This document shows, one piece after another, positions 1 to 20,251 of a stretch of DNA of 20,251 nt (the first letter of the stretch is position 1; each line of letters starts with the position of its first letter). Both the position numbers and the translations under genes were made by a program. The notes under the pieces are model-generated. The model had not been told where the DNA came from and did no database searches. It was given only the letters and a program-made list of their open reading frames with translations. This DNA is from a virus, in the IMG/VR virus record IMGVR_UViG_3300035698_011628, positions 1 to 20,251 of that record; one strand, given 5' to 3'.

Positions 1-75
1 AAAGAGATGCAAGCGACGATAGAGGAACCAGAGACATCTCCTCCATCATTTTGGCAGAAACTCTTGGGCATTTAG
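1..75 (+). CDS. 3' end of an unknown upstream gene
   Basis: The frame is open from the first base of the window and stops with TAG at 73-75, giving 24 C-terminal residues (visible end WQKLLGI). The peptide is acidic and proline-containing, with no recognisable domain. It could be the tail of any upstream phage gene. It does not look like a terminase N-terminal part or an intein N-fragment, so it does not supply the missing half of the terminase further downstream. That it is coding is inferred only from the open frame, the good spacing to the next small gene and the same strand. Confidence 0.4.
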   Translation, partial: KEMQATIEEPETSPPSFWQKLLGI

Positions 76-109
76 AAGTTGTAAGATGAGACCACTTTGA
101 GAAGAGAGA

Positions 110-181
110 ATGATATCATTCTTTTGTGCCTTCATGTTCGGGGGCGTTCTCGGCTACATTTTTGCGGATATGTTGGAGTAA
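110..181 (+). CDS. 23-residue predicted membrane peptide
   Basis: A short frame starting ATG at 110 and ending TAA at 179-181 encodes a very hydrophobic peptide with a single membrane-spanning stretch containing small-residue turns (FGGVLGYIFAD). The Shine-Dalgarno match is weak (purine-rich GAGAAGAGAG just upstream). The last codons contain the GGAG at 175-178 that serves the next gene, so the two are tightly spaced and probably translationally linked. Very small single-helix proteins are common in T4-type phages. No function can be assigned, and it could be a chance frame. The hydrophobic composition and tight packing are the support. Confidence 0.4.
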   Translation: MISFFCAFMFGGVLGYIFADMLE

Positions 182-188
182 CCCGAAG

Positions 189-701
189 ATGCCTAACGGA
201 ACAGAAACAGACAACAAATGGACTGATGAGAAATTCCTCTTTGGTGGCCCTACCTTTGGGAGTTCTCTCACAGACAAGGATTGGGCTGGAATCTTCAGGA
301 TCATTCGAGAGAAGAATGTGAAGAGCGTTCTAGAGTTTGGCTCAGGTCTTTCGACACTGCTATTCTCTGAGATGGATTTTGGTGAATTCGTCTCCTATGA
401 GACAGAAGATGAATGGATCGGCAAAGTCTCTGAGGCTGCTCTGAGTCCTCTGAAGATTCTCAAGTGGGATGGGATGACTCCTCCAAGTGATCTTGGGCAC
501 TATGACCTTGCCTTTGTGGACGGCCCTGGAGAGGGATTTCAGAGGAAGATCTCAACAGAGACCGCCGCTAAACATTCACCCATTGTCATTGTCCATGATT
601 GTGATAGAGAATGGGAACGAAAGTGGCAGATTCAGTTTCTTGAGACAAACTTCGCGCTTCGAGAGGACATTGGAGATTGTGCAAGGATGTTCGCTAAATA
701 G
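189..701 (+). CDS. Small SAM-dependent methyltransferase-like protein
   Basis: This encodes 170 residues when started at ATG 189, which has GGAG at 175-178 ten bases upstream. A GTG at 126 is in frame but lies inside the preceding small gene and has no better ribosome site. Residues 46-56 (SVLEFGSGLST) look like glycine-rich motif I of class I (Rossmann) methyltransferases. YDLAFVDGPGE near 105-115 fits the later acidic strand, followed by IVIVHD near 132-137, a pattern seen in methyltransferases of sugar and polysaccharide modification clusters. The protein is small for a full enzyme, has no separate substrate domain, and its substrate is unknown. It may modify a sugar, a small molecule or a virion component. 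It sits in a run of small genes before the terminase fragment. Confidence 0.6.
   Translation: MPNGTETDNKWTDEKFLFGGPTFGSSLTDKDWAGIFRIIREKNVKSVLEFGSGLSTLLFSEMDFGEFVSYETEDEWIGKVSEAALSPLKILKWDGMTPPSDLGHYDLAFVDGPGEGFQRKISTETAAKHSPIVIVHDCDREWERKWQIQFLETNFALREDIGDCARMFAK
694..700 (+). promoter_or_regulatory. CTAAATA late-promoter-like motif
   Basis: CTAAATA overlaps the end of the methyltransferase-like gene and lies 26 bases before the next start codon at 727. It matches the motif found before other late genes here (5119, 8540, 10110, 14220, 14897, 17890, and 5019 on the minus strand). It resembles the T4 late promoter TATAAATA. Assignment is by sequence resemblance and repeated position only. Confidence 0.4.
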
Positions 702-726
702 AAATGAAGAAAGGACTTAGAGAACC

Positions 727-945
727 ATGAAATATCGAATGGGTGCCATAGTCGTAATTGCGACAGTGATCTTTTTCCTCTCATTCATCATAGGCATTTC
801 CATTGCGTTGCAGTTTCCTTACTTAGTTCCCATCAGCCCCTCGATATTGGAGGGTGTGTTTGCGGGGACACTACTGGCGACGGTGATTGCAAGCGCTTGC
901 GTTCTTGGGTGGACATTTTGGATGATCTATCAGGTCGAGGAATAG
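727..945 (+). CDS. Small two-helix membrane protein (72 aa)
   Basis: The 72-residue product has two hydrophobic stretches, roughly residues 6-29 and 43-67, separated by a proline-containing loop, with a short basic N-terminus and acidic C-terminal end. This predicts a hairpin in the inner membrane with both ends on the same side. It follows a CTAAATA motif and an AAAGGA-type ribosome site, and is followed after 6 bases by a second gene of the same general build. Size and topology would suit a small holin, antiholin or another membrane effector, but no family is recognised and function is not claimed. Being placed before the terminase fragment suggests late co-expression. Confidence 0.6.
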   Translation: MKYRMGAIVVIATVIFFLSFIIGISIALQFPYLVPISPSILEGVFAGTLLATVIASACVLGWTFWMIYQVEE

Positions 946-951
946 AGGCAA

Positions 952-1209
952 ATGAAGAAATCTAAGAGGATAGCGAATTACTTCGAAGACCGAGCAGCAA
1001 AGATAGCGATTATTTTCCTCGCTCTTGTGGCGTCCATAGAGATTTTGATAGTGGGAGCGACGATACTTGCCAAGATTCCCCCATCGTTCGAACCTCATTG
1101 CGTTGCATTGTTCGATGTCCTCATGATCGCTCTATCTGTGCTGTTCCTGATAAGTGTTCCCGCAGCGATAGTAATCTACATGATTTGGCTATGGCGAAAT
1201 ACTCCTTAA
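952..1209 (+). CDS. Small two-helix membrane protein (85 aa)
   Basis: The 85-residue product begins with a basic, amphipathic stretch (KKSKRIANYFEDR) and then has two long hydrophobic segments, about residues 16-42 and 51-79, ending in a tryptophan-rich tail (IWLWRNTP). GAGG at 945-948 just before the ATG gives a ribosome site overlapping the stop of the preceding membrane gene, so the two are probably translated together. The pair may act in one membrane complex, but there is no recognisable family. The stop at 1207-1209 is in the same frame as the terminase fragment that begins seven bases later, so that gene cannot be extended upstream. Confidence 0.6.
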   Translation: MKKSKRIANYFEDRAAKIAIIFLALVASIEILIVGATILAKIPPSFEPHCVALFDVLMIALSVLFLISVPAAIVIYMIWLWRNTP

Positions 1210-1215
1210 ATAACT

Positions 1216-1584
1216 ATGCTTTCAGAGACAACACAACGCAAATTCGCCGAGACCATTCATATAGATGAATGGGAGATACTGACAGATACGGGCTTCGAGG
1301 ATATTGAGACTATCTCGAAGACTGTTCCATATTCAGTCTTCAGTCTTCAAACCTCTGGTGGGAAATCCCTCGATTGTGCTGATACTCACATTCTTTTCGA
1401 TCATGATGGAAATCAGATCTACGCCAAAGACTGTATTCCAGGTAAAACTCAGATTATGACTGAGGATGGTATCGAAGAGGTTTCAAGTCTGATCGGGGTT
1501 GATGGGGAGAAGGAAGAGATGTATGATCTATCTCTGAACTCTCTGAATCATCGCTACTACACAAATGGCATTCTCAGTCATAAC
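1216..1584 (+). other. Split intein C-fragment (AceL-TerL-like, atypical split site)
   Basis: This encodes 123 residues. WEILTDTGFEDI at 19-30 matches the strand that normally lies some 25 residues inside an intein. Block B is represented by CADTH (54-58) with His58, then a region like KDCIPGK (71-77). Block F is near 111-118, and block G is GILSHN (118-123) followed by Ser. No N-terminal catalytic Cys1 is present, so the split falls unusually early, leaving only a short N-fragment to be supplied in trans. AceL-TerL, from a metagenomic terminase, is known to have a 25-residue N-fragment and a C-fragment of about 104 residues at this kind of site. No homing nuclease domain lies inside. Confidence 0.85.
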
Positions 1585-2940
1585 AGCACTACGGTTATTG
1601 GATATTTCCTCCACCAAGTCAATTTCCGCCCCGATTATAATATTGCCATACTTGCTAACAAAGCACCAACAGCTAGAGAACTGTTGAGTAGATTGAAGCT
1701 TGCTTACTCCCATCTTCCTAAGTGGATGCAGCAGGGTGTGTTGGAGTGGAATAAGGGGAGCATAGAGTTGGAGAATCGTAGCAAGATTCTCGCAGCCGCT
1801 ACTAGTTCCGCCGCTATCAGAGGGCAGGCGATGAACAGTGTCCTTCTTGATGAATTCGCATTTGTTCCCATGAACATTCAAGAGGAGTTCTTCGCTTCTG
1901 TCTTCCCCACAATTTCTTCTGGACAAACTTCGAAGATCATAATCTCCTCTACTCCGAACGGCCTAGACATGTTCTACAAGATGTGGCAAGAGGCCTCTAA
2001 GGGTAGAAGTAAATTCATCCCCTACGAGATCGCCTGGAATGCTATTCCAGGAAGAGATGAGAAGTGGAAAGAAGAGACTCTGAAGAACATGACACCTGAG
2101 GCCTTCAGGCAGGAGTTTGAGGGAACATTTCTTGGTTCTTCACACACTCTGATTAGTCCTAAGAAACTCGGTACCATGACATTCTTCGATCCTATCTATT
2201 CGGAAGATGGTTTGAAAATCTATCAACAGCCTATTGATGGACATGAATATGCGATGACGGTAGATGTAGCTCAGGGAAAGAGAATGGACTATTCGGCATT
2301 TGTCGTATTCGATATTTCAGAAATTCCCTATAAGCAGGTGGCAACCTACAGGGATAATTCAGTCACCCCACTTGCCTTCCCACCGATCATTGAAGATATC
2401 GCCTCAAAGTACAATACGGCCTCTCTCTTGATCGAGGTGAATGATATGGGATCACAGGTAGCATACTCCATCTACAACGATTATGAGTATGAGAATCTTC
2501 TCACAACGACGTCTCGTGGTAGAGCAGGAATTAAACTTGGAAGTGGATTCTCGAAGAATCCAGTTCTTGGCCTGAAGATGACTTCTGGAACTAAACGAAT
2601 CGGCACATCAATTCTCAAAACGTTAATAGAAAATGACAAGTTAAGAATTGTTGACTTCGAGAATATTAGCGAGTTTTCCCATTTTGTTTCAAAGGGAAAA
2701 AGTTTCGAGGCAGAAAGCGGGCATCACGATGATCTAACGATGTGTTGTGTTGCTTTCAGTTGGCTGATTAACCAACCGAACTTCAAGGATATTAGTGGTA
2801 CGGATATTCAGAAGAGTCTTAGAAGTAATTATGAGAAGGCAGCGGAAGATGATTTATTGCCCATAGGATTTTTCCCAGACAATTTGAGTGGGGGAATTGA
2901 CTTTGTGGACGGCGGCGGAACTCCCTGGTTCAAAGCCTAA
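1216..2940 (+). CDS. terL (gp17, C-part): Large terminase C-terminal part preceded by split-intein C-fragment
   Basis: The product is 574 residues. Residues 1-123 are the C-fragment of an intein ending TNGILSHN. Residues 124-574 are the terminase gp17 from just after Walker A lysine onward (STTVIGYFLH). Walker B is VLLDE at 209-213, the coupling motif SSTPNG at 244-249, and the C-terminal nuclease carries Asp350 (VDVAQG), Glu407 (LLIEVND) and Asp505/506 (HHDDLTM), matching the Asp-Glu-Asp triad of T4 gp17. A stop in the same frame at 1207-1209 and the absence of Walker A show that the N-terminal half is encoded separately. After trans-splicing, Ser124 would become the junction residue in the ATP-binding loop. 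No clear Shine-Dalgarno precedes ATG 1216, so translation may be coupled to the upstream gene. The enzyme packages DNA into proheads through the portal. Confidence 0.93.
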   Translation: MLSETTQRKFAETIHIDEWEILTDTGFEDIETISKTVPYSVFSLQTSGGKSLDCADTHILFDHDGNQIYAKDCIPGKTQIMTEDGIEEVSSLIGVDGEKEEMYDLSLNSLNHRYYTNGILSHNSTTVIGYFLHQVNFRPDYNIAILANKAPTARELLSRLKLAYSHLPKWMQQGVLEWNKGSIELENRSKILAAATSSAAIRGQAMNSVLLDEFAFVPMNIQEEFFASVFPTISSGQTSKIIISSTPNGLDMFYKMWQEASKGRSKFIPYEIAWNAIPGRDEKWKEETLKNMTPEAFRQEFEGTFLGSSHTLISPKKLGTMTFFDPIYSEDGLKIYQQPIDGHEYAMTVDVAQGKRMDYSAFVVFDISEIPYKQVATYRDNSVTPLAFPPIIEDIASKYNTASLLIEVNDMGSQVAYSIYNDYEYENLLTTTSRGRAGIKLGSGFSKNPVLGLKMTSGTKRIGTSILKTLIENDKLRIVDFENISEFSHFVSKGKSFEAESGHHDDLTMCCVAFSWLINQPNFKDISGTDIQKSLRSNYEKAAEDDLLPIGFFPDNLSGGIDFVDGGGTPWFKA

Positions 2941-3307: not shown

Positions 3308-3574
3308 ATGACAGATCGCCAACTTAAAGCCTATATAAAATGGTGTCAACATATTATCGATCAGGATAATGTGTATCCTCCGAGTATGGGAGGTGGCGTT
3401 GAGGATTGGGAAGAGGTCTTACAAGAGCATAAAGCGAACGGATGTCTGATTTGTAAAAGATATCGCATCGCAAGGAAAAACTGGGACCGCCGAAATTGGA
3501 AAAAGGAAATAGCAGAATCACTTGGGTTGGTGGCAGTTAAGGGTGCGGTGAGTGGAAGGACTTATTACGAATAG
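3308..3574 (+). CDS. Conserved-looking small protein of unknown function (88 aa)
   Basis: The start at 3308 has AAGGAG (3292-3297) ten bases upstream and a sigma70-like promoter 56 bases upstream, so early expression is likely. The 88-residue product is soluble and rich in Trp, Lys and Arg. It has one CLIC pair at about residues 46-49 followed by KRYRIARKNWDRRNWKK, a strongly basic helix that could bind nucleic acid. A lone CxxC is not enough to call a zinc site. The last 38 bases overlap, tail to tail, the 3' end of the minus-strand endonuclease gene. I do not recognise a family. Together with the ankyrin gene it forms a small early-type island between late genes. Confidence 0.6.
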   Translation: MTDRQLKAYIKWCQHIIDQDNVYPPSMGGGVEDWEEVLQEHKANGCLICKRYRIARKNWDRRNWKKEIAESLGLVAVKGAVSGRTYYE

Positions 3575-4943
3575 AAGTTGAACACGAGAGGGAGATGAAT
3601 GAGAGGATTTCTTGGAAGACCTTCTCACCATCTCCCTCTGAAAAATCTCTCTGATCTGATATATCGATTCTCTTCAAGTTGATATTCAGGTTCTCACAGA
3701 GAGCGTTCTTAGTGATATCATTCTTTCTTTGACGCCTGAAACGTTCATCGCCGAAAATTGGCTTGTAGTGAAAGATTCCATCGATCTCCACAGCCTTCTC
3801 AAGCAGTGGAAAGTGAATATGAAGTTCGAGACCATCTAGGGTATTTCGGTCGTTGAAGATGACATTCAGGTCTGGATAAGATTTCCTGAAACGTTGCTCT
3901 ATGTAGATTTCCATTTTGGATCTTTTTCCAAGGCCCATCATCTTGTGTTCATGTTTGAAGTGAGAAGCACAAGATAGTGAGCAGAAATGATGGTTTCCTT
4001 TTAATCCGCTCGGCAAACGTTCTATTATCAACCCACAATACTCACATCCCACTTCTATCCTAGGCTTCATTTGAGACTCATTATTACACTTATTGGAACA
4101 GAAGCGCAAGGTCTTGTGAGAATTGGTATTGAGGATATCGAGAATCCGATTTCTTGACGCCTTGAAGATACCTCCACACTGCTCACATTCAACGTCCAAT
4201 TCCCTACCTGCTGCGCTGGCATTATCGAACTCCTTTTGAGTAAACTTGTAGTTGAAGGTGAATGTAGAAATATCTATGTCAGTTTTTCGAGAATTACTCG
4301 AACATTTTCGAGAACAAAACTCTAGTGATAGCGCTGAGATTTCATTGAGGGAGGTGAAGACATCTTGCCTTCTCACCTTGAACATTTTCTCACAGTTCAG
4401 ACATCTCATGGGGAGACATCTCCCATCCTTATTCTTGGTGTTATTGAATATCTCTTGAGTGAAGAGTTTATTGGGAAGAACCTCGCCGATATCAAGATAT
4501 TCGGAATGACAATGTTTGGAGCAATAGAGGATCGATTTCTTAGAGTTGGGATTTAGGTGATTAAGGACTCTTCCCCTACTTACGAGAAAGTCCTTACCAC
4601 ACCTAAGACATTTCACAGGTAACAATTTCTTATAGATATCCTTACTTGGAATCTTATCAAAGAACTCCTGAGTAAAGAGGATATTATCTGGAAGGTTATT
4701 GACATCGACCTGGGTTATCTTAGAATTGTTCTGACATCTCGCTGAACAGAATTTGAGGGTTCCATGAGAATTGGGATTCATTGCGTTATTGATAGACCCT
4801 CTCTTCACGAGAAAAATCTTGTTACATTGAAGACAAAGAACCTTCAGAGTCTTCTCTTGCCAATGTGCCTCATTGAACTCATCTAAAGTGAATCTTATGT
4901 TGTTTGGGAAGTCTTTCAGTGATTGATAAATACGTTTAGCCAT
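3537..4943 (-). CDS. Multi-zinc-finger Vsr-like (EDxHD) homing endonuclease, minus strand
   Basis: The product is 468 residues from ATG 4943. This start is chosen because AAGGAG precedes it and because the bases around it match those at the start of the gene at 7694; an upstream ATG at 4991 falls inside the leader hairpin. Residues 32-330 hold five CxxC...CxxxC modules (Cys37/40/66/70, 112/115/141/145, 181/184/210/214, 253/256/282/286, 300/303/321/325), the first four about 70 residues apart and each preceded by an FT-type motif. Residues 340-450 are a Vsr-like nuclease with Glu345, His392 (FHYKP) and Asp409. At 375, within LELHIHFP, His replaces the expected Asp, which may cripple catalysis. 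Such genes spread by cutting phages that lack them and being copied in by repair. It sits between the terminase and sheath genes, against the direction of its neighbours. Confidence 0.8.
   Translation of the reverse strand: MAKRIYQSLKDFPNNIRFTLDEFNEAHWQEKTLKVLCLQCNKIFLVKRGSINNAMNPNSHGTLKFCSARCQNNSKITQVDVNNLPDNILFTQEFFDKIPSKDIYKKLLPVKCLRCGKDFLVSRGRVLNHLNPNSKKSILYCSKHCHSEYLDIGEVLPNKLFTQEIFNNTKNKDGRCLPMRCLNCEKMFKVRRQDVFTSLNEISALSLEFCSRKCSSNSRKTDIDISTFTFNYKFTQKEFDNASAAGRELDVECEQCGGIFKASRNRILDILNTNSHKTLRFCSNKCNNESQMKPRIEVGCEYCGLIIERLPSGLKGNHHFCSLSCASHFKHEHKMMGLGKRSKMEIYIEQRFRKSYPDLNVIFNDRNTLDGLELHIHFPLLEKAVEIDGIFHYKPIFGDERFRRQRKNDITKNALCENLNINLKRIDISDQRDFSEGDGEKVFQEILSFISLSCSTSIRNKSFHSPHP
3587..3639. 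repeat. 11-bp inverted repeat at the convergent gene ends
   Basis: AGAGGGAGATG at 3587-3597 is exactly complementary to CATCTCCCTCT at 3629-3639, with 31 bases between. It lies just beyond the stop of the + strand 88-residue gene and inside the last codons of the minus-strand endonuclease. It lacks a U-run, so a simple terminator is not evident. It may instead limit transcription or stabilise message ends between convergent genes. Confidence 0.5.
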
Positions 4944-4973
4944 TTCGTAAATACTCCTTATGAATTTGGTTAG

Positions 4974-5019
4974 GAGAGATGAGAAGCTCACTACTTCTCA
5001 TCTCTCTGTCTTTATTTAG
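4974..5019 (-). promoter_or_regulatory. Late-promoter-plus-hairpin leader of the minus-strand endonuclease
   Basis: On the minus strand CTAAATA (5019-5013) is followed by AAGACAGAG and then a perfect 13-bp hairpin: arms at 5006-4994 and 4986-4974 with a 7-base loop. After the hairpin come CCTAACC and, 30 bases further, AAGGAG and the ATG at 4943. The same arrangement precedes the genes at 7694 and 17966. The promoter part resembles a T4 late promoter. The hairpin lies between promoter and ribosome site, so it is part of the transcript's 5' leader. Confidence 0.7.
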
Positions 5020-7693: not shown

Positions 7694-8539
7694 ATGGCTA
7701 ATGATATTTATACAGACTTGAAAGAGCGCGTAAGACAAACATTCAGACGAGGTAGATATTGGATCAAAAAGAGATGTCAAGGAGATGTTTGGAATGAGGT
7801 CATTGAAGCGACTAAGTTTCTCCCCAGTTCTGCAACCCATCTCGAACGAATTTATTGTGTTCTACATGAGGTAAAGGAGAAGCCACAGTGTCAGTGGTGT
7901 GGTGAAGAAAATCATTACATTAGACAAAATGTAGCCTATTCTGATTATTGTTCTGGGAAATGTGCTGTACAAGCAACCAGAGAAGATGTGATGAAGAAAC
8001 ATAAAGAGACTTGTAAGAGAAGGTATGGCGGTCATCATCGACAGAAACATTACACTGACTATCAAAGAGAAAAACTCAACGATAAACTATGGCTTACTGA
8101 ACAACATCATCAGGAGAAGAAATTCATAAAGGAAATAGCGAAGGACTTAGGGGTCTCTCAAGATACTGTCTCAAAGAGTTTTCATCAGTTCAATATCGAG
8201 ATTCTTACTCTACCATCTTCAATGCCTGAAAGAGCCTTAGCAGCATTCGTCAAAAGTATCTATGGAGGAGAAGTTTTAACTAACAACAGACAGATTATCA
8301 AACCCAGAGAGCTCGATATCTATCTTCCAGAACTCTCGAAGGCGATAGAATTTGATGGAACATATTGGCATTCAGAGGAGATGAATAAGACTCGGAGTTA
8401 CTTTCCAAAGACCAAAATTGAAGAGTGTTCCGAATTGGGCATAGAGTTGATTCACGTGCTTGAAGAAGACTGGAATCATGATCGAGAAGGAATTCTAACA
8501 CGCTTAGAGGACTTCATTGAAGAGACAGTTCCCGAATAA
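7694..8539 (+). CDS. Zinc-finger, helix-turn-helix, Vsr-like homing endonuclease
   Basis: The product has 281 residues. AAGGAG lies 9 bases before the ATG. One zinc module is formed by Cys66/69/86/90. FIKEIAKDLGVSQDTVSKSF at 144-163 is a helix-turn-helix. The C-terminal part, about 174-278, is a Vsr-like nuclease: Glu179 (MPERAL), Asp208 (ELDIYLPEL), IEFDGTYWHSEE with His226, and GIELIHVLEEDW. All the main acidic and histidine positions are present, so this is the most likely active member among the three zinc-finger endonuclease-like genes here. Such proteins are common free-standing mobile genes in T4-type phages and move between genomes by cutting near their insertion point. It stands between the sheath and tail tube genes, which are adjacent in T4. 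Confidence 0.85.
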   Translation: MANDIYTDLKERVRQTFRRGRYWIKKRCQGDVWNEVIEATKFLPSSATHLERIYCVLHEVKEKPQCQWCGEENHYIRQNVAYSDYCSGKCAVQATREDVMKKHKETCKRRYGGHHRQKHYTDYQREKLNDKLWLTEQHHQEKKFIKEIAKDLGVSQDTVSKSFHQFNIEILTLPSSMPERALAAFVKSIYGGEVLTNNRQIIKPRELDIYLPELSKAIEFDGTYWHSEEMNKTRSYFPKTKIEECSELGIELIHVLEEDWNHDREGILTRLEDFIEETVPE

Positions 8540-8665: not shown

Positions 8666-9934
8666 ATGAAGTTGATAGTAGAGATAGATCTCAGAGAATG
8701 GATCAGAGGAGTATTATTCAATTCCACTGGTAAGAGGCTGAAGAAGCGGTGGAAGAGAGATTGGTTTGAGGATATGGGACTCATTAAGTTCTATGATCGG
8801 ATTCTCATACTCACCAAGTTTCTTCCTAAGTCTGTATCTCTTGAACAGAGAATCTACACAATCGCTCTCGGCCTCTCAGAGATTCCAAGATGCAAGATCT
8901 GTGGGAAGAAGACTAAGTTCCAGGAAGCCAAGAAGGCCTACACACAATACTGTGGAAGGACTTGTGCCATTGCTGGATGTAGAGGAAATAGCATAGGAAA
9001 GCCCAAGAAGACAACGAAGAAGAGAAAGAAGCAGGTCACTGCTACCAAAGTGGTCTTCCAGCAGAGTGGTCAGAAGGTCGGAATAGATGATGTAGTCAAG
9101 TTCATTCAAGATGATCTATGCTATTCAAATGAGATCATTAGTACCAGTGACTCAAACATTTATCTACCCGATCAGAAGATGGCGATTGAGTTTATTGATC
9201 TCGCAAAAAGGTCATTTAGAGACATCGAGTCTAAGGAGCAGAGGAGAGAAGTCCTCGATAGCCTTCTTGAGAATGAGTCTAAGGGAATCAGACTCATTCA
9301 GATCTTCGAGAATGAATGGATAGACCCGAAGAAGCGAGAGATTTGGAAGTCGATCATAAGAAACAAGTTAGGAAAGAATGAGAGACGAATCTATGGAAGG
9401 CACTGTTATATAGATAAGCCAAATCAACAGGAGAAGAGGCTCTTCCTGAATAGGAATCATCTTCAAGGTTTCGTCGGCTCTTCAATTGACTATGGATTAT
9501 TCTATGAGGGACAACTTGTTTCCTTAATGACGTTTGGTAAGGCACGATTCACGAAAAATGGAGGGTATGAGTTAATTAGGTTTTGCAGTTTGCTAAATAC
9601 TTCTGTACTTGGTGGTGCTCAGAAGCTCTATAAGGCGTTTCTGAGAGATCATTCAGGTTTTTCGATAGTTTCCTACTCTGATAAGAGATTCTCAGATGGA
9701 AACCTTTATAACGTCCTCGGTATGGAGAAGAAGAGAGATTCGAATCCAAACTACTTCTACTTCAAAGAGGATGACTTGAGTAAGTTGCACAGTAGGGTGG
9801 CCTTTCAGAAGCACAAATTAGCAGGGAAGATCCCTCTATACGATTCTAAGAAGACTGAATCAGAGAATATGTTCGCCAACGGATGGAGAAGAATCTGGGA
9901 CTGTGGAAACGGAGTCTTTGAAGCAACACAATAA
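8666..9934 (+). CDS. Homing-endonuclease-like protein with degraded nuclease centre and C-terminal acyltransferase-like domain
   Basis: The product has 422 residues. A zinc module is formed by Cys76/79/96/100. Residues 110-125 are a lysine-rich linker. Residues 160-235 align with a Vsr-like nuclease (NIYLPDQKMAIEF, GIRLIQIFENEW), but Asn164 stands where Asp is expected and the usual GxYWHSE stretch is replaced by IDLAKRSF, so the cutting centre looks lost. Residues 250-385 are the region often found behind such nucleases in T4-type phages, resembling an N-acetyltransferase fold: FLNRNHLQG, YGLFYEGQLVSLMTFGKAR, YELIRF, LGGAQKLYKAF, VSYSDKRFSDGNLYNVLG, PNYFYFK. It may bind DNA without cutting it, or act through the C-terminal domain. 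An early-type and a late-type promoter precede it. AAAGAAAGG lies about 11 bases before the start. Confidence 0.75.
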   Translation: MKLIVEIDLREWIRGVLFNSTGKRLKKRWKRDWFEDMGLIKFYDRILILTKFLPKSVSLEQRIYTIALGLSEIPRCKICGKKTKFQEAKKAYTQYCGRTCAIAGCRGNSIGKPKKTTKKRKKQVTATKVVFQQSGQKVGIDDVVKFIQDDLCYSNEIISTSDSNIYLPDQKMAIEFIDLAKRSFRDIESKEQRREVLDSLLENESKGIRLIQIFENEWIDPKKREIWKSIIRNKLGKNERRIYGRHCYIDKPNQQEKRLFLNRNHLQGFVGSSIDYGLFYEGQLVSLMTFGKARFTKNGGYELIRFCSLLNTSVLGGAQKLYKAFLRDHSGFSIVSYSDKRFSDGNLYNVLGMEKKRDSNPNYFYFKEDDLSKLHSRVAFQKHKLAGKIPLYDSKKTESENMFANGWRRIWDCGNGVFEATQ

Positions 9935-14270: not shown

Positions 14271-14870
14271 ATGTCAGATCAACTAGCAAAGACCTACAGA
14301 GACTTCCTCAAGGAAGCAGCAGAAGTCAATGAAGCCAAAGAAGTAGACAAGAGTAATTGGCCTGATTGGTTGAAGAAGGCTAAGACCAAGAATGCTAAGG
14401 TTACTATAGACAAGAGGGGAAATGTTATTTGGCATTCTGGTACATGGCTTTCAGGAACTTGGAAAAATGGAAACTGGGAAGATGGCACTTGGAAAGGTGG
14501 GACTTGGGAAGATGGAACCTGGGAATCTGGAGACTGGAAAAAAGGAACATGGGTAAAGGGAACATGGTATAGTGGAGACTGGAAAAATGGAACATGGGGA
14601 GATGGAGACTGGGAAGAAGGTGACTGGGAAAATGGAGTTTGGGAAGGTGGGACTTGGGAAGATGGAACTTGGGAAGATGGAACCTGGAAAGGGGGGATTT
14701 GGGGAGATGGAACCTGGGAATCTGGAACTTGGCAAGGTGGAAAGTGGCAAAGTGGAACTTGGGAAGATGGAATCTGGAAAAATGGAACTTGGATAGATGG
14801 AACTTGGGAAGATGGAACCTGGAAAGAGGGCAAAATCAATGGCAAGAAATCCTCAACACCACCAAAATAA
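14271..14870 (+). CDS. GxWxx pentapeptide-repeat protein with T4 internal-protein-like targeting peptide
   Basis: The product has 199 residues. The front KTYRDFLKE|AA (residues 7-17) closely resembles the capsid targeting sequence of T4 internal protein III (KTYQEFIAE|A), with the L-x-E site of the prohead protease at residues 13-15. Residues 18-56 form a charged linker with two Trp. Residues 57-186 are 26 uninterrupted five-residue units of form G-x-W-x-x (mostly GTWED, GTWKG, GTWES). The end is basic with Pro and Lys. A five-residue period with regular aromatic positions suggests a beta-solenoid. Sites near the protease and scaffold genes fit a protein packaged in the head. It differs from classical A(N/D)LxX pentapeptide proteins. 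AAAGGAG precedes the ATG. Function is unknown; DNA mimicry or an injected effector are possible. Confidence 0.85.
   Translation: MSDQLAKTYRDFLKEAAEVNEAKEVDKSNWPDWLKKAKTKNAKVTIDKRGNVIWHSGTWLSGTWKNGNWEDGTWKGGTWEDGTWESGDWKKGTWVKGTWYSGDWKNGTWGDGDWEEGDWENGVWEGGTWEDGTWEDGTWKGGIWGDGTWESGTWQGGKWQSGTWEDGIWKNGTWIDGTWEDGTWKEGKINGKKSSTPPK
14439..14828 (+). repeat. 26 tandem 15-bp units coding GxWxx
   Basis: The 390 bases are built from 15-bp units with the recurring form GGA-ACT-TGG-GAA-GAT. Several units are identical or differ by silent changes. Such a tract can gain or lose units by slippage or recombination, so length variation between relatives is expected. Confidence 0.95.
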
Positions 14871-17965: not shown

Positions 17966-19039
17966 ATGGCTGTTATCTATTTAGTAAATAATCGTATCAA
18001 CTTTAAGAAGTACGTAGGTCAGACAAAGGACTCTACATTCTCTGGACGGAGGCACTGTCACCAGAGTAGATCTCGGAATGGATCATCCCAATTATTCCAT
18101 CAAGCCCTAAACACCTATGGTATAGAGAACTTCGATTGGTACATAGTTCATGAATGTGATCGAAAGTCTTTGGATTCGTTTGAGACCTTCTTCATTCGTG
18201 AATTTGAGACGTATTACGAAGACCACGGCTATAATATGACCAGAGGAGGTGCTGGAACCGTTAATTGTTCTCTCCAATCGCTCAAGGAGATGGGTAAGAA
18301 ACTTTCTGCTCATTGTCGCAAACTTCGAATAGAAACGAATCTTCAGAAGAATGTCGCGGGATTCCAACTCACACATCCAAATGGCTATTTTGAGTACTTC
18401 GAAGACATTAGAGACATCTCCAACTCCTTTGGACTTCGGCCTGATGTTCTCCTCGATCTCTCGGATGGGAAATATGTCCACCACCATTACTATGACATTG
18501 ATACGATTTACTGGGATAAATGCCGTCAAGGGAGTTATATCACACCTAAAAACAACCCTTCACCTCTCTATGAGATTATCTACCCAAACGGATTCATCTG
18601 TCAAATTAGATTTCTGCACCAATTTTGTGTAGAGCACAACATATCTCATGCTGGACTACTTCAGTGCGCCTCAATCGATCCGAGATATGTCCACAAGACT
18701 GAGAACAGGGGTTATATGATTAAGATTGTCACGGATACCCCAGTGACACTCAATCGAACAGAGATTATAGATGAGTATGCCAGAGGAAAATCTTATGGCG
18801 AGATCGCAACGCATTTGAGAACAACCCCGTTTGAAGTGAAGAAAGCCCTCATCGAAGAATCTATTCCCCTCAGAGGACTTCGATTGTATGGAGATATTCC
18901 GAACGATGCGGAACTAATGCAGAAATTGAATGTGGAAAATCTCTCCAAGGAAGAAATTGCAAGACATTATTCGGTTTCTGGAAGTACAGTTCGGAGATGG
19001 TTTCGCTCAATCTCTCCAATCATTCAGAAGGCTCTCTAA
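17966..19039 (+). CDS. GIY-YIG homing endonuclease with C-terminal helix-turn-helix units
   Basis: The product has 357 residues. The N-terminal nuclease of about 95 residues shows VIYL (3-6) and KKYVGQT (14-20) as the GIY-YIG strands, Arg28/29 with RRHCH, and Glu73 in SFETFFIREF as the likely metal-binding acid, ending HGYNMTRGG. Two sections with THPNG (136-140) and YPNG (206-209) resemble repeated recognition modules of phage homing proteins. Residues 265-300 (IIDEYARGKSYGEIATHL) and 326-346 (LSKEEIARHYSVSGSTVRRW) are helix-turn-helix units for DNA recognition. It belongs to the Seg-type free-standing nucleases of T4-like phages. AAAAAGG lies some 13 bases before the ATG. The next gene begins two bases after its stop and is a paralogue. 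Confidence 0.9.
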   Translation: MAVIYLVNNRINFKKYVGQTKDSTFSGRRHCHQSRSRNGSSQLFHQALNTYGIENFDWYIVHECDRKSLDSFETFFIREFETYYEDHGYNMTRGGAGTVNCSLQSLKEMGKKLSAHCRKLRIETNLQKNVAGFQLTHPNGYFEYFEDIRDISNSFGLRPDVLLDLSDGKYVHHHYYDIDTIYWDKCRQGSYITPKNNPSPLYEIIYPNGFICQIRFLHQFCVEHNISHAGLLQCASIDPRYVHKTENRGYMIKIVTDTPVTLNRTEIIDEYARGKSYGEIATHLRTTPFEVKKALIEESIPLRGLRLYGDIPNDAELMQKLNVENLSKEEIARHYSVSGSTVRRWFRSISPIIQKAL

Positions 19040-19041
19040 TC

Positions 19042-19869
19042 ATGGCTGTTATCTATTTAGCTCAAAATTGCATCAACTTCAAAAAGTATGTAGGACTTAC
19101 TTCTCTTTCACTTCAGGAGAGAAAGCACCGCCATATTCTGGCTTCAAGGTCTGATGATAAGAATCGCCTCAAGGCATTTCAACTCGCACTCAAGAAGTAT
19201 GGCCCAGAGAATTTTAAATGGTATGAGGTGATTGAATGTTCGCAGGAGCAGGCCGAAACATTTGAAAGATTCTTCATCAAACACTTTGAATCGCGATATG
19301 AAAATCATGGATACAATCTAACAGATGGCGGTGAAGGTAATCAGAAGATGAGCAAAGAGTGTTTATGTAGAATGGGAAAGAAACAGTCTGTGAGAGTGAG
19401 AAAGAGAAAGATCGAAGAGAATCTCAAGAAGAACATCATTGGTTATCAAGTTACCCATCCCAATGGACAACCTGAATATGTTGAGTTCATTGCTGAGTTT
19501 GCAAAGGAACATGGCCTTAGCGCGTTTTCTATGAATCAACTATCACAGAAGAAGATGTTTTCATGTAATGGTTATCTTTGTGACACAATCTATATTGACA
19601 CCAAGACTAATAGACCATATATTGTTGAGAGAGAACCCTCTTCAACTTCAAAGAAACTAAGAGAGTTCGAGATTACTCATTCAAATGGTTTTAAGATGAG
19701 AACGAGGTTTCTCACGAGGTTCTTCGAAGAGCATAATCTTGATCCAGAAATTAGGAGAACATTCAATGGGACAAGCAACTACGAGAGAACATTCATAGTC
19801 TCAGACTATCAGATCAAGATTCTCAAACCGAATGTTAAATGTGGCATCAAAAAGAAAAATCTCAAATAA
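19042..19869 (+). CDS. GIY-YIG homing endonuclease, shorter paralogue
   Basis: The product has 275 residues from ATG 19042, chosen because the MAVIYL start is the same as in its neighbour; an ATG at 18997 in frame lies within the previous gene. KKYVGLT (14-20), Arg27 with RKHRH, and Glu75 in TFERFFIKHFE give a complete-looking GIY-YIG centre, closing with HGYNLTDGG. THPNGQPEY and THSNGFKM mark two recognition-type modules in the same order as in the first copy. The C-terminal helix-turn-helix part of the first paralogue is missing. The chain ends in a lysine-rich tail (CGIKKKNLK) shortly before bacterial-looking DNA begins, but the stop codon is natural in context. Translation is likely coupled to the upstream gene. 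Confidence 0.88.
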   Translation: MAVIYLAQNCINFKKYVGLTSLSLQERKHRHILASRSDDKNRLKAFQLALKKYGPENFKWYEVIECSQEQAETFERFFIKHFESRYENHGYNLTDGGEGNQKMSKECLCRMGKKQSVRVRKRKIEENLKKNIIGYQVTHPNGQPEYVEFIAEFAKEHGLSAFSMNQLSQKKMFSCNGYLCDTIYIDTKTNRPYIVEREPSSTSKKLREFEITHSNGFKMRTRFLTRFFEEHNLDPEIRRTFNGTSNYERTFIVSDYQIKILKPNVKCGIKKKNLK

Positions 19870-19958: not shown

Positions 19959-20251
19959 TCAGTTCGGTGTCGCTGATGCCCCTTCCTTCGGTTCATTCGC
20001 GTCCACCAGCCCGCGCACGTCTATCTTACCCGTCACCGCGTGCGATATCAGCGACGAACGGTATTCTTCCAGCACTTCGAGCTGACGACGACGCACCTCC
20101 AGCAACCGATCTATCTTCTCCGTTTCGCGGTCGATGTGGGCGACGATGGCTTGTTGTTCGACAGGGGGTGGGACTGCCATTGTATGATTACTCAAGTCCT
20201 GTTGAGTCATGCTGGGCAATGCGGTTTGCGTTGAGTAGAAACCAAATGGAA
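19959..20251 (-). CDS. hsdS: C-terminal part of type I restriction specificity subunit, 5' end off the window
   Basis: The minus-strand frame is open from the window edge (20251) to TGA at 19961-19959, about 96 residues. It has the classical end of a second target-recognition domain and coiled coil: TQTALPSMTQQDL, then PPPVEQQAIVAHIDRETEKI, then RRRQLEVLEEYRSSLISHAV and TGKIDVRG. HsdS selects the DNA target of a type I restriction-modification complex. The end may be frameshifted: in another frame, just before the stop, ISDTELKAIQKALADL followed by TAG (minus-strand stop near 19932) reads like the natural C-terminus, and one extra G in the GGGG run at about 19980 would join them. It is unlike the phage genes in base and codon use. 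Confidence 0.85.
   Translation of the reverse strand, partial: PFGFYSTQTALPSMTQQDLSNHTMAVPPPVEQQAIVAHIDRETEKIDRLLEVRRRQLEVLEEYRSSLISHAVTGKIDVRGLVDANEPKEGASATPN

What the first reader, a model, noticed from the sequence alone, without database searches (positions are those of the whole stretch)
1216..1584. Terminase gene split by an AceL-TerL-type intein with a very early split site
The gene opens with an intein C-fragment that lacks only the first segment with Cys1, then continues as terminase exactly after the Walker A lysine position. AceL-TerL, a known rapid split intein from a metagenomic phage terminase, is built the same way with a 25-residue N-part. Here the C-fragment is 123 residues, longer at both the start (about 8 residues more before the first conserved strand) and the middle. 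The phage cannot package DNA without trans-splicing, so the partner gene must exist elsewhere. It is a new candidate member of a small class of atypical split inteins.
Basis: partly seen in the sequence, partly recalled or inferred. Interest (0 to 1): 0.8.

Follow-up and report, generated by a model that had tools for sequence, protein, structure and literature searches.

The report
Split-intein C-half on phage terminase
The DNA-packaging motor gene of this uncultivated T4-like phage starts with the back half of a protein-splicing element, so the motor must be joined from two separately made proteins; this is a clear new example of a kind already known, and related phages show what the missing front half looks like.

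Summary
ORF 1216-2940 encodes 123 residues of an intein C-fragment fused in frame to a T4 gp17-type terminase that starts just after the Walker A lysine. The fragment folds as a HINT domain lacking its first ~20-40 residues (AlphaFold pLDDT 92; best solved matches VidaL, then DnaB inteins, Cat and gp41-1). The interpretation, an atypically (early) split intein, is well supported: 41 of 43 relatives with at least 2 kb of upstream sequence carry the matching N-part within the fetched locus, usually 0-1.8 kb upstream. Its pattern is '...RQxGK|C..(D/N)T.V.VRNKKTGEI..TIGDFY', a 29-66 residue tail with Cys1, often with a Vsr-like nuclease gene in the gap. The window's own N-part is not in its 20,251 bp. 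Only 1,215 bp lie upstream, and all eight relatives with under 1.6 kb upstream also lack it, so contig truncation is the simplest reason. In two relatives the N-part is far away (172 kb; about 24 kb on the other strand). The class is neither small nor confined to metagenomes: 245 viral contigs and 322 phage records match, including contiguous copies at the same site in Ackermannviridae. Verdict: a new member of a known kind. Trans-splicing itself is inferred.

The parts
1216..1584 (+). Intein C-fragment (IntC), 123 aa, HINT domain without its N-terminal Cys1 segment; ends ...GILSHN
1585..1587 (+). Ser+1, the expected C-extein nucleophile; first residue after the Walker A Lys position of terminase
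1585..2940 (+). Terminase large subunit C-extein (T4 gp17-like ATPase after Walker A, plus RNase H-like nuclease); Walker B LLDE and nuclease D/E/D residues kept
1..1215 (+). Upstream region where the N-part would be expected: one methyltransferase-like ORF (126-701) and two small ORFs (727-945, 952-1209); no IntN, no terminase N-extein, no recognisable homing endonuclease

Best explanation
The ORF is the C-terminal precursor of a naturally, atypically split intein in the terminase large subunit of a T4-like phage. A second gene, off this contig, is expected to encode the terminase N-terminus ending ...RQxGK, followed by a roughly 30-45 residue IntN that starts with Cys1 (pattern C..(D/N)T.V.VRNKKTGEI..(T)IGDFY). 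The two halves associate, the short IntN completes the HINT fold, and standard class-1 splicing joins ...GK to STT..., restoring the Walker A motif that ATP hydrolysis for DNA packaging needs. Steps: Cys1 N-S shift, transfer to Ser124, Asn123 cyclisation. The sequence anatomy, the insertion site, the fold of the C-half and the existence of matching N-parts in relatives are shown. Splicing, and the window's own N-part, are inferred.
For: Profile and structural match to VidaL, gp41-1 and Cat; AlphaFold model pLDDT 92. Conserved block-B His, block-F His and C-terminal Ser-His-Asn invariant in 48 homologues. 79 of 80 intein-free terminases have GK directly before Ser124. N-parts found in 41 of 43 relatives with >=2 kb upstream and in 0 of 8 with <1.6 kb upstream, the latter being the window's own situation. 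Terminase catalytic residues kept over a 574-codon open frame. Split and contiguous versions exist in named phages.
Against: The N-part is not in the 20,251-bp record. The 1.2 kb upstream lacks the nuclease gene that usually fills the gap in relatives. No overlapping contig was found. No splicing data exist for this sequence. The ATG at 1216 has no clear Shine-Dalgarno sequence.
Confidence: 0.9

Rival explanations
1. The upstream contig end or a local error hides a contiguous intein: the IntN is normally fused in the same gene, and the window shows a broken or mis-assembled copy.
For: Contiguous inteins at the same Walker A site occur in Ackermannviridae (Det7, VAP7, Kuja, Magnus) and in L034 and L059. 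The record is a fragment.
Against: Immediately upstream is an unrelated ORF ending at 1209, and no frame in the 1,215 bp upstream carries IntN. The fragment starts with the same M(L)SxTxxRKF segment as the starts of split relatives.
Confidence: 0.05
2. A decaying remnant: the N-part was lost and this terminase is dead, with another terminase taking over.
For: No partner seen in the record.
Against: 574-codon open frame with all intein and terminase catalytic residues intact; it sits in a complete-looking T4-like structural gene order with sheath, portal, protease and capsid.
Confidence: 0.04
3. The terminase halves are joined at RNA level (intron), as reported for the ICP1 terminase (PMC10448857).
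For: RNA splicing of a phage terminase transcript is documented.
Against: The 123 residues are a conserved protein HINT domain, and N-parts in relatives end in a conserved Cys-led IntN, not at an intron boundary.
Confidence: 0.01

Closest known systems
VidaL (atypically split intein, IntN 16 aa; PDB 6vgv)
   Same: Best solved match by sequence profile (E 6e-19) and structure (VIA-align Z 15.0, rmsd 2.2 over 108 residues, Foldseek rank 1); short IntN, long IntC
   Different: IntN in this family is about 30-45 aa and extends past the first helix; VidaL splits after strand 2 (PMC13014065)
AceL-TerL / GOS-TerL and their consensus Cat (PDB 6dsl)
   Same: Terminase host, short IntN (25-37 aa) and long IntC; splits after the first helix (S2; PMC13014065); Cat Z 14.1, profile E 1e-10
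   Different: More distant in sequence than VidaL and gp41-1; Cys+1 in AceL (table in PMC11766414) against Ser+1 here; IntC 123 vs 104 aa
Contiguous terminase inteins of Ackermannviridae (Det7, ViI, LIMEstone, VAP7, Kuja; annotated as 'intein' in Klebsiella phage Magnus)
   Same: Same terminase site (GK|C...HN|T), homologous intein, 36-43% identity over the C-part
   Different: One gene, not split; about 158-180 aa intein
Fractured genes with split inteins and free-standing nuclease genes (Dassa et al. 2009, NAR 37:2560; known here only from citations)
   Same: Relatives show N-part, Vsr-like nuclease ORF, C-part in that order
   Different: In the window the first 1.2 kb upstream has no nuclease gene and the N-part is not visible
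Split terminase of Salicola phage SCTP-2
   Same: C-part starts with a homologous IntC; N-part ends ...RQLGK|CVDYETNITVRHKETGEE...
   Different: Partner lies 172 kb away, and the C-part itself ends in a second IntN-like tail near Walker B

Membership tests
Intein (HINT splicing domain), class 1 | HINT fold with block-B His, block-F His and C-terminal His-Asn followed by Ser/Thr/Cys+1 | tested here: met
   ends SHN|S
Intein (HINT splicing domain), class 1 | Cys1/Ser1 nucleophile at the intein N-terminus | tested here: inconclusive
   Not in the record; present as Cys1 in the N-parts of relatives
Atypically (N-terminally) split intein, AceL-TerL/VidaL type | Gene break close to the intein N-terminus, leaving a long IntC that starts its own gene | tested here: met
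   ATG 1216 opens the IntC; model residue 10-12 aligns with residues 18-28 of whole inteins; relatives split at the same place
Atypically (N-terminally) split intein, AceL-TerL/VidaL type | Separate N-part gene with a short IntN | tested here: inconclusive
   Absent from this 20-kb fragment; present in 41/43 relatives with enough upstream sequence
Atypically (N-terminally) split intein, AceL-TerL/VidaL type | Protein trans-splicing activity | not testable with these tools
   needs an experiment
T4-type terminase large subunit (gp17) | ATPase with Walker A/B and RNase H-like nuclease with its acidic residues | tested here: met
   C-extein carries Walker B and nuclease residues; the Walker A Gly-Lys must come from the N-part
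Fractured gene (N-part, homing nuclease gene, C-part) | Free-standing nuclease gene between the two halves | tested here: inconclusive
   None in the 1,215 bp available; the contig ends there

The most novel reading that the evidence does not exclude
The window's N-part is not linked to the C-part at all: as in SCTP-2 (172 kb) and L053 (about 24 kb, opposite strand), the two terminase halves have moved apart in the genome and other genes replaced the nuclease. The split intein would then be fixed as an obligatory trans-splicing system rather than a homing cassette.
Probability: 0.25. Interest if true: 0.5.

Novelty: new member of a known kind. Interest (0 to 1): 0.35.

Why it matters
Only a few naturally atypically split inteins are named in the reviews read here (AceL-TerL, GOS-TerL, VidaL, PolB16), and their short IntN is prized for labelling proteins. 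The relatives gathered here give dozens of matched N/C pairs across non-homologous P-loop ATPases (terminase, gp46-like, DnaB-like, Clp-like, RFC-like), always cut after the Walker A Lys. They come with contiguous cousins at the same terminase site. That makes the path from contiguous intein to fractured gene to unlinked trans-splicing open to study.

Tried and rejected
Pattern, tblastn and HMM searches for an N-part in the window, both strands, gave nothing above chance, while the terminase N-extein HMM gave 37 hits at E<=1e-3 in the relatives. Searches for contigs overlapping the left end, by the 126-701 protein and by an exact 25-mer, found nothing. The bacterial/archaeal genome scan with the IntC alignment found no relative. 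The tree of IntC sequences is mostly unresolved: TerL and gp46 copies mix in a weakly supported group (88/58) and no nearest relative of the window copy can be named. T4 gp17 itself misplaces the junction by one residue (GKTT against GKSTT), so the site was set from closer relatives. Dassa 2009 and Bachmann and Mootz 2015 are not held as full text.

Full report
WHAT IS THERE. The window is a complete 20,251-bp IMG/VR record with T4-like gene content: terminase, sheath, portal, head maturation protease and major capsid protein. ORF 1216-2940 encodes 574 aa. Residues 124-574 are a gp17-type terminase (E 2e-79) with Walker B and the nuclease D/E/D residues conserved. Residues 1-123 are not terminase. 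They match the C-terminal part of inteins, weakly as a single sequence and strongly as a profile of 48 homologues: VidaL 6e-19, gp41-1 4e-16, Cat 1e-10. The AlphaFold model of the fragment alone (pLDDT 92) is a HINT fold that aligns from about residue 10-12 with residue 18-28 of whole inteins, and is nearest to VidaL (Z 15.0; Foldseek rank 1).

THE JUNCTION. In 79 of 80 intein-free terminase relatives the residues in frame directly before the homologue of Ser124 end in GK; the 80th is cut by the contig end. The intein therefore sits exactly between the Walker A Lys and the next Ser. T4 gp17 has one residue fewer here (GKTT), which would misplace the site by one.

THE MISSING HALF IN RELATIVES. 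A scan of viral contigs with the IntC gave 245 relatives; 80 were read. In the close subfamily the IntC opens or nearly opens its gene and runs into a P-loop ATPase cut after Walker A. Judged from the C-extein sequences, these are terminase, gp46-like, DnaB-like, Clp-like and RFC-like proteins. Upstream lies the N-part, '...RQxGK|C(F/V)xx(D/N)T.V.VRNKKTGEI..TIGDFY'. Of 51 distinct relatives, 43 have at least 2 kb upstream and 41 of these carry an N-part in the locus; none of the 8 with less than 1.6 kb does. The gap between the halves is 0-1.8 kb and often holds one ORF of a shared family with a C-terminal Vsr-like/DUF559-like nuclease region. This is the 'fractured gene' arrangement of Dassa et al. 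2009, known here from citations and memory.

THE WINDOW'S PARTNER. No IntN or terminase N-extein is in the record by tblastn or HMM; the terminase N-extein HMM gave 37 hits at E<=1e-3 in the relatives as positive control. The window has 1,215 bp upstream, so it falls in the class of relatives where the N-part is off the contig. The upstream ORFs (a methyltransferase-like protein and two small proteins) have no match in PHROGs, and the first of them none in viral contigs or cultivated phages. Two relatives show that the partner can be far away. In Salicola phage SCTP-2 (440 kb) the C-part is at 256.4 kb (+) and the N-part at 429.4 kb (-). In L053 they are about 24 kb apart on opposite strands.

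CULTIVATED RELATIVES. 322 phage records match the IntC. In Ackermannviridae (Det7, VAP7, Kuja) the homologous intein is contiguous at the same terminase site, and it is annotated as an intein in Klebsiella phage Magnus. Split forms occur in Agrobacterium phage Atu_ph07 (adjacent genes, Ser1) and in Yersinia phage phiR1-RT (at Walker B, with an endonuclease gene between the halves).

MECHANISM. Inferred from established intein chemistry: IntN docks on the pre-folded IntC, then Cys1, Ser124 and Asn123 carry out trans-splicing and restore GK|STT. Without it the C-part has no Walker A lysine, so the terminase should be inactive. This was not tested.

PLACE AMONG KNOWN THINGS. Naturally atypical split inteins with IntN of 15-37 aa are established (AceL-TerL, GOS-TerL, VidaL, PolB16; PMC13014065, PMC11766414, PMC10189870). 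This is a new member of that kind, with a split in the same region. It understates the size of the class, picks AceL-TerL where VidaL and gp41-1 are closer, and calls the split earlier than it is.

Noticed in passing
window 19959-20251 (-): The right end encodes the C-terminus of a type I restriction S subunit (best plasmid match 53% identity). The last ~280 bp have 55.5% GC against 41.8% overall, and no 280-bp window before 19.9 kb exceeds 50%: possible chimeric join or a host-derived end.
   Followed up: partly
L165 4001-4885 (Salicola phage SCTP-2): The terminase C-part ends near Walker B in a second IntN-like tail (CLDGETTVKLRDKESGEVKEETLSGLYNELE...), so this terminase looks fractured into three pieces.
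   Followed up: partly
L166 2531-5380 (Yersinia phage phiR1-RT): Terminase split right after Walker B (IYIDE|C...), with an endonuclease ORF between and an IntC-like start on the second half: an atypically split intein at a second terminase site in a cultivated T4-like phage.
   Followed up: partly
L009 6641-9743 and L059 7716-9700: In-frame TAG codons inside both terminase and intein parts, suggesting TAG is read as sense in these large phages.
   Followed up: partly
L045 2346-5354: Terminase, intein and a ~330-residue insert form one long open frame, while an HNH-like ORF lies in another frame of the insert.
   Followed up: no
window 3537-4991 (-), 7694-8539 (+), 8666-9934 (+), 17966-19039 (+), 18997-19869 (+): Five free-standing homing-endonuclease-like genes (two GIY-YIG) around the sheath and capsid genes.
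   Followed up: partly
window 14271-14870 (+): Protein made largely of tandem ~5-residue Trp/Gly repeats (G-T/D/N-W-x-x).
   Followed up: no
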